This document shows positions 30,646 through 45,543 of a stretch of 46,820 nt of DNA, piece by piece; positions within the stretch are counted from its first letter, which is position 1, and the number at the start of each line of letters is the position of its first letter. The notes beneath the pieces were generated by a model, which saw nothing but the letters and a program-made list of their open reading frames with translations, ran no database searches and was not told where the DNA came from. Source of the stretch: Sulfobacillus sp. Lineage in GTDB: Bacteria; Bacillota; Sulfobacillia; Sulfobacillales; Sulfobacillaceae. The translations under genes were made by a program, and so were the position numbers. The stretch is taken from the NCBI GenBank assembly GCA_027309085.1, contig DAIDDL010000033.1:1-46820 (forward strand), read 5' to 3'.

Positions 30646-32416
30646 ATGCATACGGAATCTGCTCATATTGAGGGAAGAGCTGTCTCGGATTGGCGGACTC
30701 ATTTGGCGGTCCGGCTCATACGTCCCAATGAACGGGATCGGTGGCGGACGTTGATGGCCGCGCATCACTATTTAGGATTCCGCGGCTTGGTGGGCGAAGC
30801 CCTGTATTATGTCGCCTGTCTCGACGACGAGTGGGTCGCTCTCCTCGGATGGACTGCGGCCGCGTGGATGTGTCGGCCGCGCGATCAATGGATCGGATGG
30901 ACTCGCGCTCAGCAATGGGCGCGCCTGCGCTTCGTGGTCAACAACGCTCGCTTTCTAATCTTACCGGGCGTGCATGTGCCCAACCTCGCCTCTAAAACCC
31001 TGGCGCTCAATACTCGACGTTTGGCCACGGATTGGCAGGCGGTGTATGGACATCCCGTCGTGCTGGCCGAAACCTTTGTCGATCCGGCGCGCTTTGCTGG
31101 CACGGCTTACCGCGCCGCGGGATGGCAGTATCTGGGGCAAACCCAAGGGTTTGCCCGCCAATCCCACCATTATGTGTACCACGGCCACCCGAAAGCCCTC
31201 TGGGTCCGCCCGTTGCGCGCGGGCAGTCCTCAGGGTCTGACGGCGCCGCTTCTCCCCCCCACATTACAAGGAGGTGCTCTCACCTTGGTGGATTTTAACG
31301 CCCTGAATTGGGTCGGCCCGGGCGGCCTGCGCGACCGCCTGCACGCGCTCATCGACCCGCGCCATCGGCGCGGGATCCGGCATTCCGTCACCCAAGTGCT
31401 GGTGTTAGCTTTAGCCGCTGTCGTCGCCGGCCAACGCAGCTTTATCGCCATCGGCGACTGGATTCACGATCTGAGCCCGGAACAACGGGCCCTGTTCGGG
31501 TGCCCCCGCTGGGGCCAGACCTTCAAAGTACCCAGTGAGCCGACCGTGCGCCGGGTGCTGCAAAGAATGGATGCCGATGCCTTGGATATGGTGCTGAATC
31601 AGTGGCTCACTGCAGAAGAAGTGCGGGTGGGCGATGCCATCGCCATCGATGGCAAAAGTCTCAGGGGTTCGGCGCACGGCCATCGTAAGCGGCCGGTACA
31701 CCTCTTGTCCGGGTTAGTGCATCGCACGGGGCAAGTGATCGGTCAAGTCGATGTGGACATCAAAACGAACGAGATTCCTAAACTGAAAGATCTGCTCGAG
31801 CCCCTCGACATTGCGGGGGCCATTGTCACCGTCGATGCCCTTCATACGCAAACGGAAACTGCCCGCTACCTGGTGGAGGACAAACAGGCCCATTATGTCA
31901 TGGAAGTGAAAATGAACCAACTTACTCTCTATAAAACCCTGGAGGCTCTCGACCTCGAGGATTTTTCCCCCTCCCGTCCAAACGGACGATAGAGGCCACG
32001 GCCGCATGGAAACGCGTACGGTCCGCACCGCGGCGGTACCCAAGTCTGTCACCTGGCCTCATGCGGGCCAAGTGTTTCGCATTGATCGCCACGTCACGGA
32101 CCTCCCCGGGGAGAATCCCCGGGATGAAACGGCCTACGGTATCATCGATCTGGGCCCCCAAGTCGCCGATGCGACACGCATCGACACGCTCGTGCGCGGC
32201 CATTGGGGCATTGAAACGCGTCTGCATTACGTCCGCGACATGACCTACGATGAGGACCGCTCACAAGTGCGTACCGGGAATGGACCGCGCGCGATGGCCA
32301 TCCTGCGCAATACCGCCACTGGGCTACTCCGGCGTCTGCAGTTACCCAACATTCAACGGGCTGTCAATCACTTACAGCGCCGACCGGACCAGGTGGCCAC
32401 GCTCCTCTTGAGCTGA
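30646..32416 (+). pseudogene. DruA-domain/ISAs1 transposase fusion, frameshifted
   Basis: The first frame (30646-31992, 448 residues) begins with a DUF4338/DruA-like domain of about 200 residues (ERDRWRTLMAAHHYLGFRG, LPGVHVPNLASKTLA, VLAETFVDPARFAGTAYRAAGW). A standard ISAs1 transposase follows (RRGIRHSVTQVLVLAL, IAIDGKSLRGS, and a following VTVDALHTQTETA). The second frame (to 32416) continues it with RIDTLVRGHWGIETRLHYVRD. The shift is near 31965-31980 in a run of five T then five C residues. Correcting one base restores GHGRMETRTV. DruA domains attached to ISAs1 transposases are known. The gene is probably dead unless the shift is an error or programmed. Confidence 0.88.
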
Positions 32417-39504: not shown

Positions 39505-39533
39505 TTGCTAAAAATGCGCAGGCAGGGCATAGT
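39505..39533 (+). promoter_or_regulatory. Candidate thi operon promoter
   Basis: TTGCTA (39505-39510) and CATAGT (39528-39533) are 17 bases apart, placing the transcription start at the first base of the TPP aptamer. Confidence 0.45.
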
Positions 39534-39539
39534 GGTCTT

Positions 39540-39624
39540 AACGGGAGCTCGGGGAACTGGGCTGAGAGGGTGGATTACCGCCACCGACCGTAAAACCTGA
39601 TCTGGATAATGCCAGCGGAGGGAA
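39540..39624 (+). promoter_or_regulatory. TPP riboswitch (THI element) of the thi operon
   Basis: The conserved aptamer pieces are in order: ACGGGAGCTCGGGG, GGGCTGAGAGGG, then ACCTGATCTGGATAATGCC followed by AGCGGAGGGA. The last two are almost exactly the classical thi-box sequences. The expression platform is in 39625-39721, ending at the GAGGAGG ribosome binding site of thiC. TPP should repress the whole thiC-thiO operon. Confidence 0.95.
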
Positions 39625-39709
39625 AATATGATTATAATAGTCCCCATCATTTCTCCTTTTTGCCACCTGTTCCATCAGGAATTCGGTCCTCCCGTCTATT
39701 GCGATCTGA

Positions 39710-41470
<1,761 letters not shown>

Positions 41471-41475
41471 CTGGA

Positions 41476-42096
41476 GTGTTGTGGGGCTTAATCGACACTG
41501 CCCGGTTTGATCCGCGCCATTGGCGGGATTTGCCTGCTGTGGGAGTATCTCTTGACGGGTTATGGCTGCGTGGACCCGCTCTATCTCCTGCTGAATGGCT
41601 CGAGTGGGGTCAAGCGATTGCCCGTCTCATTCCGCAGGTGCCGCTTTGGATCGGAGGAAATGTTCTGGCAGCGCGGGCACTGGAGGCTGATGGGCTGCAA
41701 TTGCCCAGCCATCATCTGGCAGCACGGAGAGTACGAAATCAATGGGACCGTCCTATCGCAGCCTCCGTTCATTCTTTGGAGGAGTTTGAACGGCACTGCG
41801 AAGCGGATTGGTTCATTTGGGGCCATGCTTTTGCCACACGGTCTAAACCGGGAATGTGTCCCCGCTCCCGCGCTAGTTTGGAGGCCATTTTAGAACGGAC
41901 GGCCCACCCTGTGATGATTATTGGAGGCGTAGACGCGTCCACTGTGTCGGAGGTCGCTCACTGGGGGGGATCAGGAGTGGTGGTCGGTGACGGAATTTGG
42001 CAACAGTCTAATCCCGCCTCGGCGGCAGCCGTCATCAAGCACCTTTGGAACCAGGAAACACGGGGAGGGACACCAACAGATGACCTTGACAGTTAA
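41476..42096 (+). CDS. tenI: TenI-type thiazole tautomerase (ThiE family)
   Basis: A 206-residue TIM-barrel protein of the ThiE/TenI family. The segment ASVHSLEEFE, then WGHAFATRSKPGMCPR, matches TenI, in which the histidine of GH(V/A)F serves in aromatising the thiazole made by ThiG. GGVDAS and GVVVGDGI form the phosphate-binding site. The aspartate pair used by true ThiE for HMP-PP is not obvious. With its place before thiS-thiG, tautomerase is the better call, and thiamine phosphate synthase the alternative. A GTG start at 41476 has AGGGAAG upstream. It overlaps thiS. Confidence 0.75.
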   Translation: MLWGLIDTARFDPRHWRDLPAVGVSLDGLWLRGPALSPAEWLEWGQAIARLIPQVPLWIGGNVLAARALEADGLQLPSHHLAARRVRNQWDRPIAASVHSLEEFERHCEADWFIWGHAFATRSKPGMCPRSRASLEAILERTAHPVMIIGGVDASTVSEVAHWGGSGVVVGDGIWQQSNPASAAAVIKHLWNQETRGGTPTDDLDS

Positions 42097-42280
42097 CGGC
42101 GAACCGAAGGTCATTGCCGCCGTGACAACGGTTGGCAATCTATTGGACCACTTCGGGGTATCGCATCAAACGGTTGCGGTGATGGTCGACGGCGTAATCA
42201 TCGCTCGCGAACACGTCGGGAACACGTTATTGCGCGAAGGGGCTTCAATAGAAATCATTCGTTTTGTGGGAGGGGGATAA
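42080..42280 (+). CDS. thiS: Sulfur-carrier protein ThiS
   Basis: A 66-residue ubiquitin-like protein starting MTLTVNGEPKVI and ending FVGGG. The C-terminal Gly-Gly is adenylated by ThiF and then converted to a thiocarboxylate, the sulfur donor for the thiazole ring. The start at 42080 lies inside the end of tenI in another frame, with GGGAGG upstream. The very C-terminus has three glycines. Confidence 0.93.
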   Translation: MTLTVNGEPKVIAAVTTVGNLLDHFGVSHQTVAVMVDGVIIAREHVGNTLLREGASIEIIRFVGGG

Positions 42281-42282
42281 TT

Positions 42283-43083
42283 ATGCCGATATTGGAGGAC
42301 AGTCCGATTCAGGTCGGACCTTATACGTTTCATTCTCGTCTCTTTGTGGGAACCGGAAAATATGCCAGCAACACTCTAATGCAAGATGCCCTCGCTGCGT
42401 CCGGTACTGAACTAGTCACTGTGGCGCTACGCCGGGTCAACTTGTCCCGTTCTGACGAACCTTCACTATTAAATTTCGTGCCGCCCTCCGTCAAAATTTT
42501 ACCCAATACCGCGGGCTGCTACACCGTGGAGGATGCGCTCCTAGCAGCGGACTTGGCCCGCACAGCCGGAATCGGCGACTTAATTAAACTCGAAGTGATA
42601 GCGGACAGCATGCTTTTGTGGCCCGACCCGATCCTAACCCTTCAAGCCACGGAACGATTGGTGGCAAAAGGATTTACGGTCATGGTCTATACCACACCGG
42701 ACCCCATATTGGCCAAGCATCTGGAGGACGCGGGCGCCGCTGCCGTGATGCCTTTGGGCTCTCCTATCGGATCTGGACAAGGGATAATCGATATCGAAGC
42801 GATTTACCGCATCAAAGAACGCGTCACGCGTGTACCCGTGGTCGTGGATGCAGGAATTGGGGGAGCGGCCGACGCGGCCGTGGCTATGGAAGCCGGGGCG
42901 GATGCGGTACTGGTGAATACCGCGATCGCTTTGGCGAAAAATCCCGCGGCCATGGCCGAGGCCATGAAATGGGCCGTGATAGCGGGACGTCAGGGATATT
43001 TGGCAGGACGCATGCCCAAGCGTCGGGTGGCCGAGGCATCTTCTCCAGAATCGGGACGCGTCGAGGCGTATGGTGGATTGTAG
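42283..43083 (+). CDS. thiG: Thiazole synthase ThiG
   Basis: ThiG joins DXP, dehydroglycine (from ThiO) and sulfur (from ThiS) into the thiazole phosphate. The 266-residue TIM barrel has SRLFVGTGKYAS, the Schiff-base lysine in LIKLEVI, MPLGSPIGSG and VDAGIG, all conserved. It starts 3 bases after thiS and its end overlaps thiF by 14 bases. Confidence 0.96.
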   Translation: MPILEDSPIQVGPYTFHSRLFVGTGKYASNTLMQDALAASGTELVTVALRRVNLSRSDEPSLLNFVPPSVKILPNTAGCYTVEDALLAADLARTAGIGDLIKLEVIADSMLLWPDPILTLQATERLVAKGFTVMVYTTPDPILAKHLEDAGAAAVMPLGSPIGSGQGIIDIEAIYRIKERVTRVPVVVDAGIGGAADAAVAMEAGADAVLVNTAIALAKNPAAMAEAMKWAVIAGRQGYLAGRMPKRRVAEASSPESGRVEAYGGL

Positions 43084-43831
43084 TCCGGTGATTTCGGACA
43101 AAGAACGGGTACGGCGCCTGGTGTCGCTGCCGGGAGTCAAACCAGAGCGGGTGGCGCGACTGCGAGACACGACCGTCGCCATCGTCGGAGTCGGCGGCAT
43201 TGGCCAGGCTGCCGCACAGCATCTGGTGGCGCAAGGGGTGGGGCGTATCATACTCATCGACCCTGACCGGGTGGAAGCGCATAATCTCTCGCGGCAAATC
43301 TTGCTGACGCCGCCCATGGTGGGCCAATTCAAAGTGGATGCCGCGGCCGAGCGTCTATGGGAGCTCTCCCCCACGGTGCAGATTGAACAGCGCCGGGACC
43401 AGCTTGATGAGGCAAATGTCGACGCACTGTTGCAAGAGGCCGCCATTGTGTTGGATGGGGTGGATTTGGGACAGCCGCGCGAGGTATTGAACCGCTACGC
43501 CATGCGCTCGGGTAAACCGGTATTTTTTGCTGGAGCTACCGGGTATGAAGCACAAGTCTTTGGTGTCCACGGCGGGCAACCCTGTTTGACGTGCTTGTTT
43601 GGATCCGTGGCGGATGTAGAGGATGATTGTGCTGCGACGGGTGTGCTAGGACCCGTTGTAGGTATGGCGGGGCTGGTGCAGGCGCAAGAAGTGTTGAAAT
43701 GGGTGCTGCAGGTGGGCCAGTCCTTGGTCGGGCGTTTATGGCAATGGGATGGATTTTCCGGGTCTACGCGCATCATTGCGATTCCATCCCGCACGGACTG
43801 CCCAGTATGCAGCCCGGCTCATCCCCAATGA
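43070..43831 (+). CDS. thiF: ThiS adenylyltransferase ThiF
   Basis: An E1-like enzyme that adenylates the C-terminus of ThiS. The 253 residues include the nucleotide-binding GVGGIGQ, the IDPDRVEAHNLSRQ segment, and two CxxC pairs (CLTC and CPVC) that bind structural zinc. The start lies within thiG. The family also includes MoeB, but the neighbours make ThiF the natural partner. A 122-base gap follows before thiO. Confidence 0.92.
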   Translation: MVDCSPVISDKERVRRLVSLPGVKPERVARLRDTTVAIVGVGGIGQAAAQHLVAQGVGRIILIDPDRVEAHNLSRQILLTPPMVGQFKVDAAAERLWELSPTVQIEQRRDQLDEANVDALLQEAAIVLDGVDLGQPREVLNRYAMRSGKPVFFAGATGYEAQVFGVHGGQPCLTCLFGSVADVEDDCAATGVLGPVVGMAGLVQAQEVLKWVLQVGQSLVGRLWQWDGFSGSTRIIAIPSRTDCPVCSPAHPQ

Positions 43832-43953: not shown

Positions 43954-45543
43954 ATGATCTTGGCGGATACAACCGTGGATGTGCTCATCGTGGGCGGCGG
44001 AGTGATTGGCTGTGCTCTGGCCTATGACCTTGCGGCAGCGGGGATTGGTGTGAAACTGTTGGAACGGGATACGGTGGGAGCCGGAACATCCTATGGTGCC
44101 GGCGGCATGTTGGCACCGCAAATTGAATTCTCCGAAGGCGGCCTGGGCTTGGAGTGGGGGTTGCGATCTCTCGCTTTATACCGAGAATGGGATCACACTA
44201 TCTGTGATCGTATCGGACTCGGATTGGATCTGGATCTTTCCGGGGTAGTGCGGGCCACGGAAGGAGGACCAGATGAATTAGGAGCGTTGGCCGCCCGCCA
44301 AGTCCAGATGGGGCACGTGGCCCGATTGCTGGATGGTCCGGGCATTCGCGATTGGGCACCCGGAATTAATTCCGAGGCGCAATTCGGACTCTGGGTGCCT
44401 GGGGGACAGGTGGACGCATGGCGGGCCACCCGGGTCTTGGCTCAAGCCGCGGCCAGCCAGGGGGCGATGATCCATACCGGTGTGACGGTTACCGGTTTAG
44501 AGGACGGAGCCGTGCTGACTTCTATGGGGCGCTTGGAAGCACAGTACATTATTGTGGCCGCCGGTGCGTGGATTCCTCATCTCTTGGATTTGCCCTTGCG
44601 GCCGGTAAAGGGGCAGCGCCTTTTGGTCGAACTGCCTCAATTGCTGGCGCGGGCGCCGATTTTTGGAGACAGTGTCTATGTCGTGCCCAAGGCGGGCGGA
44701 CGCTATTTTTTGGGGGCGACCGAAGAATCTGATGGAGGCTATGACCGTCGGGCGACCTTGGCGGGGTTGACAGCAGTGGGAGCGGCAGCTGAGCGATTAT
44801 TTCCCAAACTCGCTCAGGCAGAAGTGGTCGAGCAATGGGCTGGTCTTCGGCCTGTATTTCCCGATGGCTTGCCGATGATTGCGCCTGCCCCTCAGTATGA
44901 CCGAGTGCTGGTAGTGGGCGGACATTACCGGCACGGCTTTCTTCTTGCACCGGTCACGGCGCGCGCGGTGCGGGATTGGATGATCAAGGGAACTCCCTTG
45001 CCCTCCGATTTTTCTTACAATCGGTTTGACCAGGCTGAGAAGGCTGTGACTGAACCGCCAAAGAAAGACGCGCCAGTATCTGCTGTAAGTGTCTCAACGG
45101 CTGCCGATGTGTTGCGGGGAGAAGTCACGATTGCGGCCGATCCTGCTGTAGTCTACCGAGTCTTTTGCGATCCTACTCATTATCCTCGACTGATGCCGGA
45201 TGTCCAGCAAGTGGAGGTAGTGAAGGCGGAATCAGCCTATCGCATTGTTCAGTGGACAGTCCACTATTTCGGTCAACGGATTGAGTGGACGGAACGACAA
45301 ACATGGGATGGGCGGGAGAGTCTAGAAGGGGATCTGCTTGCGAGCAATTTCTTTGAACATTATCGCTATTGTGGCCGTGTGACTCGCGACCCTATCGGCA
45401 GCATAGTCACCATCGAAGTAGAAATGACGTCCCGGCGTCGGGGACTGGTGCTGGCAGCTGCCCGGAAAATATTAGCGCAAAACCTTCAAGCTTTTTTGCA
45501 TGCACTGAGACAAGAATTGGAAGCCGTGGCTAGAGAGTCCTGA
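43954..45543 (+). CDS. thiO: Glycine oxidase ThiO fused to an SRPBCC/START-like domain
   Basis: A 529-residue protein. Residues about 1-357 are ThiO, a flavoenzyme oxidising glycine to the imine used by ThiG: FAD motif LIVGGGVIGCALAYDLA, then GAGTSYGAGGMLAP, and GLRPVFPDGLPMIAP with HYRHGFLLAP near the end. A proline- and alanine-rich linker (about 358-383) joins a second domain of about 145 residues (EVTIAADPAVVYRVFCDPTHYPRLM, later FEHYRY and VEMTSRRRG). That domain has the pattern of the SRPBCC/Coq10-START fold, a hydrophobic-ligand pocket. ThiO is usually about 370 residues. The ATG at 43954 is 5 bases from AAAGGGGG; the adjacent ATG at 43951 is too near. Confidence 0.88.
   Translation: MILADTTVDVLIVGGGVIGCALAYDLAAAGIGVKLLERDTVGAGTSYGAGGMLAPQIEFSEGGLGLEWGLRSLALYREWDHTICDRIGLGLDLDLSGVVRATEGGPDELGALAARQVQMGHVARLLDGPGIRDWAPGINSEAQFGLWVPGGQVDAWRATRVLAQAAASQGAMIHTGVTVTGLEDGAVLTSMGRLEAQYIIVAAGAWIPHLLDLPLRPVKGQRLLVELPQLLARAPIFGDSVYVVPKAGGRYFLGATEESDGGYDRRATLAGLTAVGAAAERLFPKLAQAEVVEQWAGLRPVFPDGLPMIAPAPQYDRVLVVGGHYRHGFLLAPVTARAVRDWMIKGTPLPSDFSYNRFDQAEKAVTEPPKKDAPVSAVSVSTAADVLRGEVTIAADPAVVYRVFCDPTHYPRLMPDVQQVEVVKAESAYRIVQWTVHYFGQRIEWTERQTWDGRESLEGDLLASNFFEHYRYCGRVTRDPIGSIVTIEVEMTSRRRGLVLAAARKILAQNLQAFLHALRQELEAVARES

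What the first reader, a model, noticed from the sequence alone, without database searches (positions are those of the whole stretch)
43954..45543. ThiO glycine oxidase carries an extra C-terminal SRPBCC/START-like domain
The thi operon otherwise looks standard, but its ThiO is about 160 residues too long. After a Pro/Ala-rich linker comes a domain with the Coq10/polyketide-cyclase pattern. ThiO makes unstable dehydroglycine, and a ligand-binding domain could protect or hand over an intermediate, or bind a product for feedback. I know of no described ThiO of this type.
Basis: partly seen in the sequence, partly recalled or inferred. Interest (0 to 1): 0.75.

Follow-up and report, generated by a model that had tools for sequence, protein, structure and literature searches.

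The report
ThiO enzyme with extra ligand-binding domain
In a Sulfobacillus-like bacterium the vitamin B1 enzyme ThiO (glycine oxidase) really does carry an added START-type domain at its end, but the fusion is a rare lineage-specific add-on, absent from the closest relative's ThiO, so it is a new domain combination and probably not a needed step of vitamin B1 synthesis.

Summary
One uninterrupted 529-aa ORF (43954-45543) is a complete ThiO-type flavoenzyme (residues 9-342), a flexible linker (lowest confidence 366-376) and a C-terminal SRPBCC/START-like domain (385-525; Pfam PF10604 E 2e-14; AlphaFold pLDDT 84.5; best PDB match TTHA0849, Z 19.7). The gene closes a TPP-riboswitch-headed operon, thiC-tenI-thiS-thiG-thiF-thiO.

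The fusion is not unique. Three other genomes of the class carry it intact, all away from their thi genes; one more has a remnant. In two of these three it is the only intact ThiO, and no ThiH was found, so the enzyme half probably serves thiamin synthesis. S. thermotolerans has a 65% identical ThiO in the same operon place but no SRPBCC domain. The fused ThiO belongs to a clade distinct from the usual Sulfobacillus ThiO and apparently replaced it in this operon.

The domain is therefore an accessory module, evolving faster than the enzyme yet kept in frame. Guarding or handing over dehydroglycine is not supported. I favour a tethered binder of a hydrophobic ligand that tunes or places the oxidase; the ligand is unknown. 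No paper found describes this architecture. New variant of a known kind, moderate interest.

The parts
39531..39640 (+). TPP riboswitch (RF00059) heading the thi operon
   Evidence: cmscan 63.1 bits, gathering 54.3
39722..41470 (+). thiC
   Evidence: PF01964 E 1.6e-190
41476..42096 (+). tenI/thiE-like
   Evidence: PF02581 E 1.5e-18; best NCBIfam TenI, below its cut-off
42080..42280 (+). thiS (likely start at MTLTV)
   Evidence: TIGR01683 above cut-off; ORF
42283..43083 (+). thiG
   Evidence: PF05690 E 3.4e-98
43070..43831 (+). thiF
   Evidence: PF00899 E 1.4e-57
43954..45543 (+). thiO-SRPBCC fusion, 529 aa plus stop
43978..44979 (+). FAD/DAO catalytic domain, residues 9-342; Y242, R299 and R326 (invariant in 45 ThiO proteins) present
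45028..45105 (+). linker, residues 359-384, poorly conserved and flexible in its core (366-376)
   Evidence: pLDDT below 50 at 366-376; 12-31% identity to the other fusions
45106..45540 (+). SRPBCC/START-like domain, residues 385-529
   Evidence: PF10604 and PF03364, fold

Best explanation
This is a working ThiO (glycine oxidase) of a ThiO clade peculiar to this bacterial class, whose ancestor gained a C-terminal SRPBCC domain. In the window's lineage this gene sits in the thi operon in place of the usual Sulfobacillus ThiO and supplies dehydroglycine to ThiG. The SRPBCC domain is an accessory, tethered binder, most likely of a hydrophobic (aromatic or isoprenoid) small molecule, that tunes or places the oxidase. 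It is not a required part of thiazole chemistry. Shown: domain identities and fold, operon and riboswitch, recurrence, absence of the domain in the sister ThiO, conserved catalytic residues. Inferred: glycine oxidase activity, displacement of the older ThiO, ligand binding and its effect.
For: Catalytic half: TIGR02352 and glycine oxidase structures are the best matches, with the substrate-site Tyr and Arg residues kept. In the window genome, in G244 (thi genes without thiO) and in G220 (thi-linked thiO broken by frameshifts and a large deletion) the fusion is the only intact ThiO, and no ThiH was found. Accessory status: S. thermotolerans ThiO is 65% identical, in the same operon place, and ends at the linker. 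A tree with all fusions apart from S. thermotolerans is rejected (p-AU 1.4e-32), while one clade of fusions plus S. thermotolerans is not (p-AU 0.25), which fits one gain and a loss. The domain is 24-27% identical between the window and the other fusions, against 42-49% for the catalytic part, with four-fold sites near saturation in both, so it is kept but under weaker constraint. The fused domains form a subfamily apart from the solo SRPBCC protein common in the class (solo split 100/98). Nearest folds bind hydrophobic ligands (fold matches; ligand classes from general knowledge and entry titles).
Against: No ligand, activity or expression data. The domain's fast divergence and absence in S. 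thermotolerans also fit a passenger with no important role. G257 keeps a second, usual ThiO in its thi operon, so there the fusion may do something else. In G244 the fusion lies beside a methylmalonate-semialdehyde-type dehydrogenase and a PucR regulator, a catabolic setting.
Confidence: 0.5

Rival explanations
1. Passenger: the domain belonged to an ancestral, unlinked (perhaps catabolic) oxidase and has little function now that the gene sits in the thi operon; it is on its way to being lost, as in S. thermotolerans.
For: Missing in the sister ThiO; fast divergence; the three other intact fusions are unlinked to thi genes; G244 copy next to a dehydrogenase and PucR gene.
Against: Intact fold prediction with pLDDT 84.5 and open frame in four genomes although four-fold sites are near saturation.
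Confidence: 0.22
2. Fold stabiliser or oligomerisation module with no ligand, for instance protecting the enzyme in an acidophile.
For: Recurs only in this class, which includes acidophiles (habitat from general knowledge); linker-tethered.
Against: Most relatives in the same class do without it; SRPBCC folds normally have a cavity (general knowledge).
Confidence: 0.13
3. Electron-acceptor module: the domain brings a quinone to the reduced FAD, so the enzyme works as a glycine dehydrogenase when oxygen is scarce.
For: COQ10-type proteins of this fold bind quinones (general knowledge); CC1736 is among the fold matches (Z 15.5); one close solo relative in G221 lies next to a geranylgeranyl reductase family gene.
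Against: Fold matches rank TTHA0849 and polyketide cyclases above CC1736; no quinone motif was identified; single-genome neighbourhood.
Confidence: 0.08
4. One reading: the domain shields or hands dehydroglycine to ThiG, or senses a thiazole/thiamin product.
For: Located in the thi operon under a TPP riboswitch here. Analogy: dimethylglycine oxidase has C-terminal domains that process its labile product (general knowledge; DMGO is among the fold matches of the enzyme half).
Against: Absent from the sister ThiO in the same operon; other fusions unlinked and without a detected TPP riboswitch; dehydroglycine is small and polar.
Confidence: 0.07

Closest known systems
Glycine oxidase ThiO (Bacillus subtilis 1ryi/1ng3, Geobacillus kaustophilus 4ysh)
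   Same: Catalytic domain, fold, substrate-site Tyr and Arg residues, thi operon
   Different: Known structures end near residue 370-390 with no SRPBCC domain
ThiO-ThiG fusions of cyanobacteria
   Same: ThiO with a second domain fused at its C-terminus; 14 seen here
   Different: The partner there is the next pathway enzyme ThiG, not a ligand-binding domain
SRPBCC/START-like proteins PF10604 and PF03364 (TTHA0849, ZhuI and TcmN aromatase/cyclases, CC1736)
   Same: Fold and sequence family
   Different: Those are stand-alone or sit in polyketide pathways; here fused to a flavin oxidase and divergent from the solo family in the same genomes
Dimethylglycine oxidase/dehydrogenase (1pj5, 5l46)
   Same: DAO-type oxidase with accessory C-terminal domains
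   Different: The C-terminal part there is a folate-binding T-protein-like module (general knowledge), unrelated to SRPBCC

Membership tests
ThiO glycine oxidase | DAO/FAD fold with ThiO as best family and structure match | tested here: met
   TIGR02352 is the top model and glycine oxidases the top PDB matches
ThiO glycine oxidase | Score above the NCBIfam TIGR02352 equivalog cut-off | tested here: not met
   241.6 against 250.8 bits for the window protein; its S. thermotolerans sister is also below (227.6); the three other intact fusions are above. A near miss, so the name ThiO rests on context and homology
ThiO glycine oxidase | Substrate-site Tyr and two Arg residues (Y246, R302, R329 of B. 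subtilis, recalled numbering) | tested here: met
   Y242, R299 and R326, invariant in 45 ThiO proteins
ThiO glycine oxidase | Linked to thiS-thiG-thiF under TPP control, with no alternative ThiH | tested here: met
ThiO glycine oxidase | Oxidises glycine | not testable with these tools
   needs an assay
SRPBCC/START-like domain (PF10604) | Profile match above the curated cut-off | tested here: met
   54.5 bits against 27.4
SRPBCC/START-like domain (PF10604) | Helix-grip fold | tested here: met
SRPBCC/START-like domain (PF10604) | Binds a hydrophobic ligand | not testable with these tools
   coordinates and assay not available
COQ10-type quinone binder | Quinone binding | not testable with these tools
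   only fold-level similarity to CC1736 (Z 15.5)

The most novel reading that the evidence does not exclude
The SRPBCC domain brings a membrane quinone to the flavin, turning ThiO from an oxygen-dependent oxidase into a quinone-linked glycine dehydrogenase that makes dehydroglycine without oxygen and without ThiH.
Probability: 0.07. Interest if true: 0.72.

Novelty: new variant of a known kind. Interest (0 to 1): 0.38.

Why it matters
It is a domain combination for which no description was found, on an enzyme of a core vitamin pathway. It shows the ThiO C-terminus accepting a ligand-binding module as it accepts ThiG in cyanobacteria, and gives a natural pair (window with the domain, S. thermotolerans without, 65% identical, same operon) for testing what an SRPBCC domain does to a flavin oxidase. 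If the ligand were a quinone, it would bear on how thiazole is made when oxygen is scarce.

Tried and rejected
Assembly artefact: rejected because independent genomes show the same architecture. Fusion as part of the thi operon in general: rejected, as the three other intact fusions are unlinked. A wide spread: not found. A scan of 84,980 genomes with ThiO patterns kept the best 80 of 395 relatives, and only the class members G244 and G220 were fused; 398 genomes sampled over the phylum gave no further fusion; plasmid records had none covering most of the query. Apparent long open frames around solo SRPBCC genes in G200, G195, G198, G199, G232, G211 and G214 were not shown to be fusions; those examined looked like open frames of high-GC DNA around a solo gene, or gave no clear coding ORF; G199 was not examined. 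Two longer ThiO-like hits (L027, L029) were not pursued. TPP riboswitch next to the unlinked fusions: none at gathering threshold. Literature searches for ThiO or glycine oxidase with SRPBCC found only incidental co-mentions, judged from titles and counts. Cavity analysis was not possible, as model coordinates are not exposed. Domain orientation is not interpretable (full-length pTM 0.70).

Full report
Observation. The ORF 43954-45543 encodes 529 residues in one frame. Pfam finds the DAO oxidase domain at 9-342 and Polyketide_cyc2/Polyketide_cyc at 389-523. NCBIfam's best family is ThiO, at 241.6 bits just under the equivalog cut-off of 250.8. The nearest solved proteins by sequence are glycine oxidases 4ysh, 7cyx and 1ryi for the first part and TTHA0849 (2d4r) for the last part. 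AlphaFold predicts the isolated domain with pLDDT 84.5 as strand-helix-helix-six strands-long helix; PDB comparison gives TTHA0849 Z 19.7 and ZhuI Z 19.6. In the full-length model both domains are confident overall and residues 366-376 are not, so the link is flexible and the relative placement is undetermined (pTM 0.70).

Setting. The gene is last in thiC-tenI-thiS-thiG-thiF-thiO, headed by a TPP riboswitch at 39531-39640. The genome shares its genus, as grouped by the tool, with G258, whose 3,317,203-base contig equals in length Sulfobacillus thermotolerans Kr1 CP019454. No other protein of the window genome scores comparably as ThiO (next best 111.5 bits) and ThiH was not found.

Relatives. 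A search of 154 genomes of the class with the whole protein and with a model of the fused domain found the intact fusion in the window genome, G257 (same genus), G244 (same family) and G220 (another family); they share 36-41% identity with the window protein end to end. G219 has the domain and the very end of ThiO joined to an acyl-CoA-dehydrogenase-like piece, a remnant or misassembly (the piece named by eye). S. thermotolerans has a 65% identical ThiO at the same operon position that ends at the linker, with the next gene 93 bases on. ThiO of the G220 family next to thiG (G217, G218, G221) is unfused, as is a partial one at a contig edge in G216. Most Sulfobacillus genomes have a quite different ThiO, about 32% identical, in their thi operon.

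Linkage and dependence. The fusions of G244, G257 and G220 are not near thi genes and have no detected TPP riboswitch. G244 has tenI-thiS-thiG-thiF on another contig with no thiO, and G220 has a broken thiO beside thiG (several frames, much of the middle missing). In both the fusion is the only intact ThiO scoring at family level. G257 has both the fusion and the usual ThiO. This pattern supports a thiamin role for the enzyme half in three of the four genomes, though the catabolic neighbours in G244 (methylmalonate-semialdehyde dehydrogenase family and PucR regulator) leave room for another role. G244 and G220 are metagenome-assembled, so absence of a second thiO there is less certain.

History. 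In trees of the catalytic part, the window and S. thermotolerans proteins pair (100/100), sister to G244+G257 (100/99), within a clade with G220 and the unfused ThiO of the G220 family, apart from the usual Sulfobacillus ThiO. Holding the fusions together without S. thermotolerans is rejected (p-AU 1.4e-32); holding them together with it is not (p-AU 0.25). The simplest reading is one fusion event, loss of the domain in S. thermotolerans, and entry of this ThiO into the thi operon in place of the older one. Whether the unfused relatives of the G220 family lost or never had the domain is open, and separate fusions are not excluded. The fused domains and two solo proteins of G221 lie apart from the solo SRPBCC protein common across the class (100/98), with long branches.

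Constraint. Between fusions the catalytic part is 41-61% identical and the domain 21-41%, while four-fold degenerate sites are near saturation in both. The domain is maintained, but less strictly than the enzyme.

Interpretation. The enzyme half keeps the substrate-site residues Y242, R299 and R326 (assignment to B. subtilis Y246, R302 and R329 from general knowledge). Because the nearest ThiO does without the domain in the same operon, a compulsory role in guarding or passing dehydroglycine is unlikely. SRPBCC proteins as a rule hold hydrophobic ligands (general knowledge), so I favour a tethered binder that tunes or places the oxidase, with a passenger as the main rival. A quinone-delivery role is the most novel reading not excluded; it rests on fold-level similarity and on one solo relative beside a geranylgeranyl reductase family gene, which is weak.

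Known or new. ThiO-ThiG fusions exist (14 cyanobacterial examples seen here) and DAO oxidases with other C-terminal modules are known (dimethylglycine oxidase). A ThiO-SRPBCC fusion was not found in the searchable papers. I file it as a new variant of a known kind.

Noticed in passing
window 30646-31992: One ORF joins a DruA (Druantia protein) domain to a DDE transposase with its associated domain; a DruA-like ORF also lies near the thi genes of G244 (L166 94-612).
   Followed up: partly
L167 6876-7512: Broken thiO (frameshifts and a large internal deletion) directly after thiG in G220, whose intact ThiO is the SRPBCC fusion elsewhere.
   Followed up: yes
L200 249-1652: In G219 the fused-type SRPBCC domain and the very end of ThiO follow an acyl-CoA-dehydrogenase-like fragment in one ORF; recombination or misassembly.
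   Followed up: partly
L202 8116-10427: A solo SRPBCC gene close to the fused domain subfamily sits beside a geranylgeranyl reductase family gene (TIGR02032 above cut-off).
   Followed up: partly
window 44932-44934: ThiO of the window has His327 where at least 90% of 45 aligned ThiO proteins have Asn (RNG motif); S. thermotolerans also reads RHG, and both score under the TIGR02352 cut-off.
   Followed up: no
window 41476-42096: The TMP-TENI gene of the operon matches TenI better than ThiE, both below NCBIfam cut-offs.
   Followed up: no
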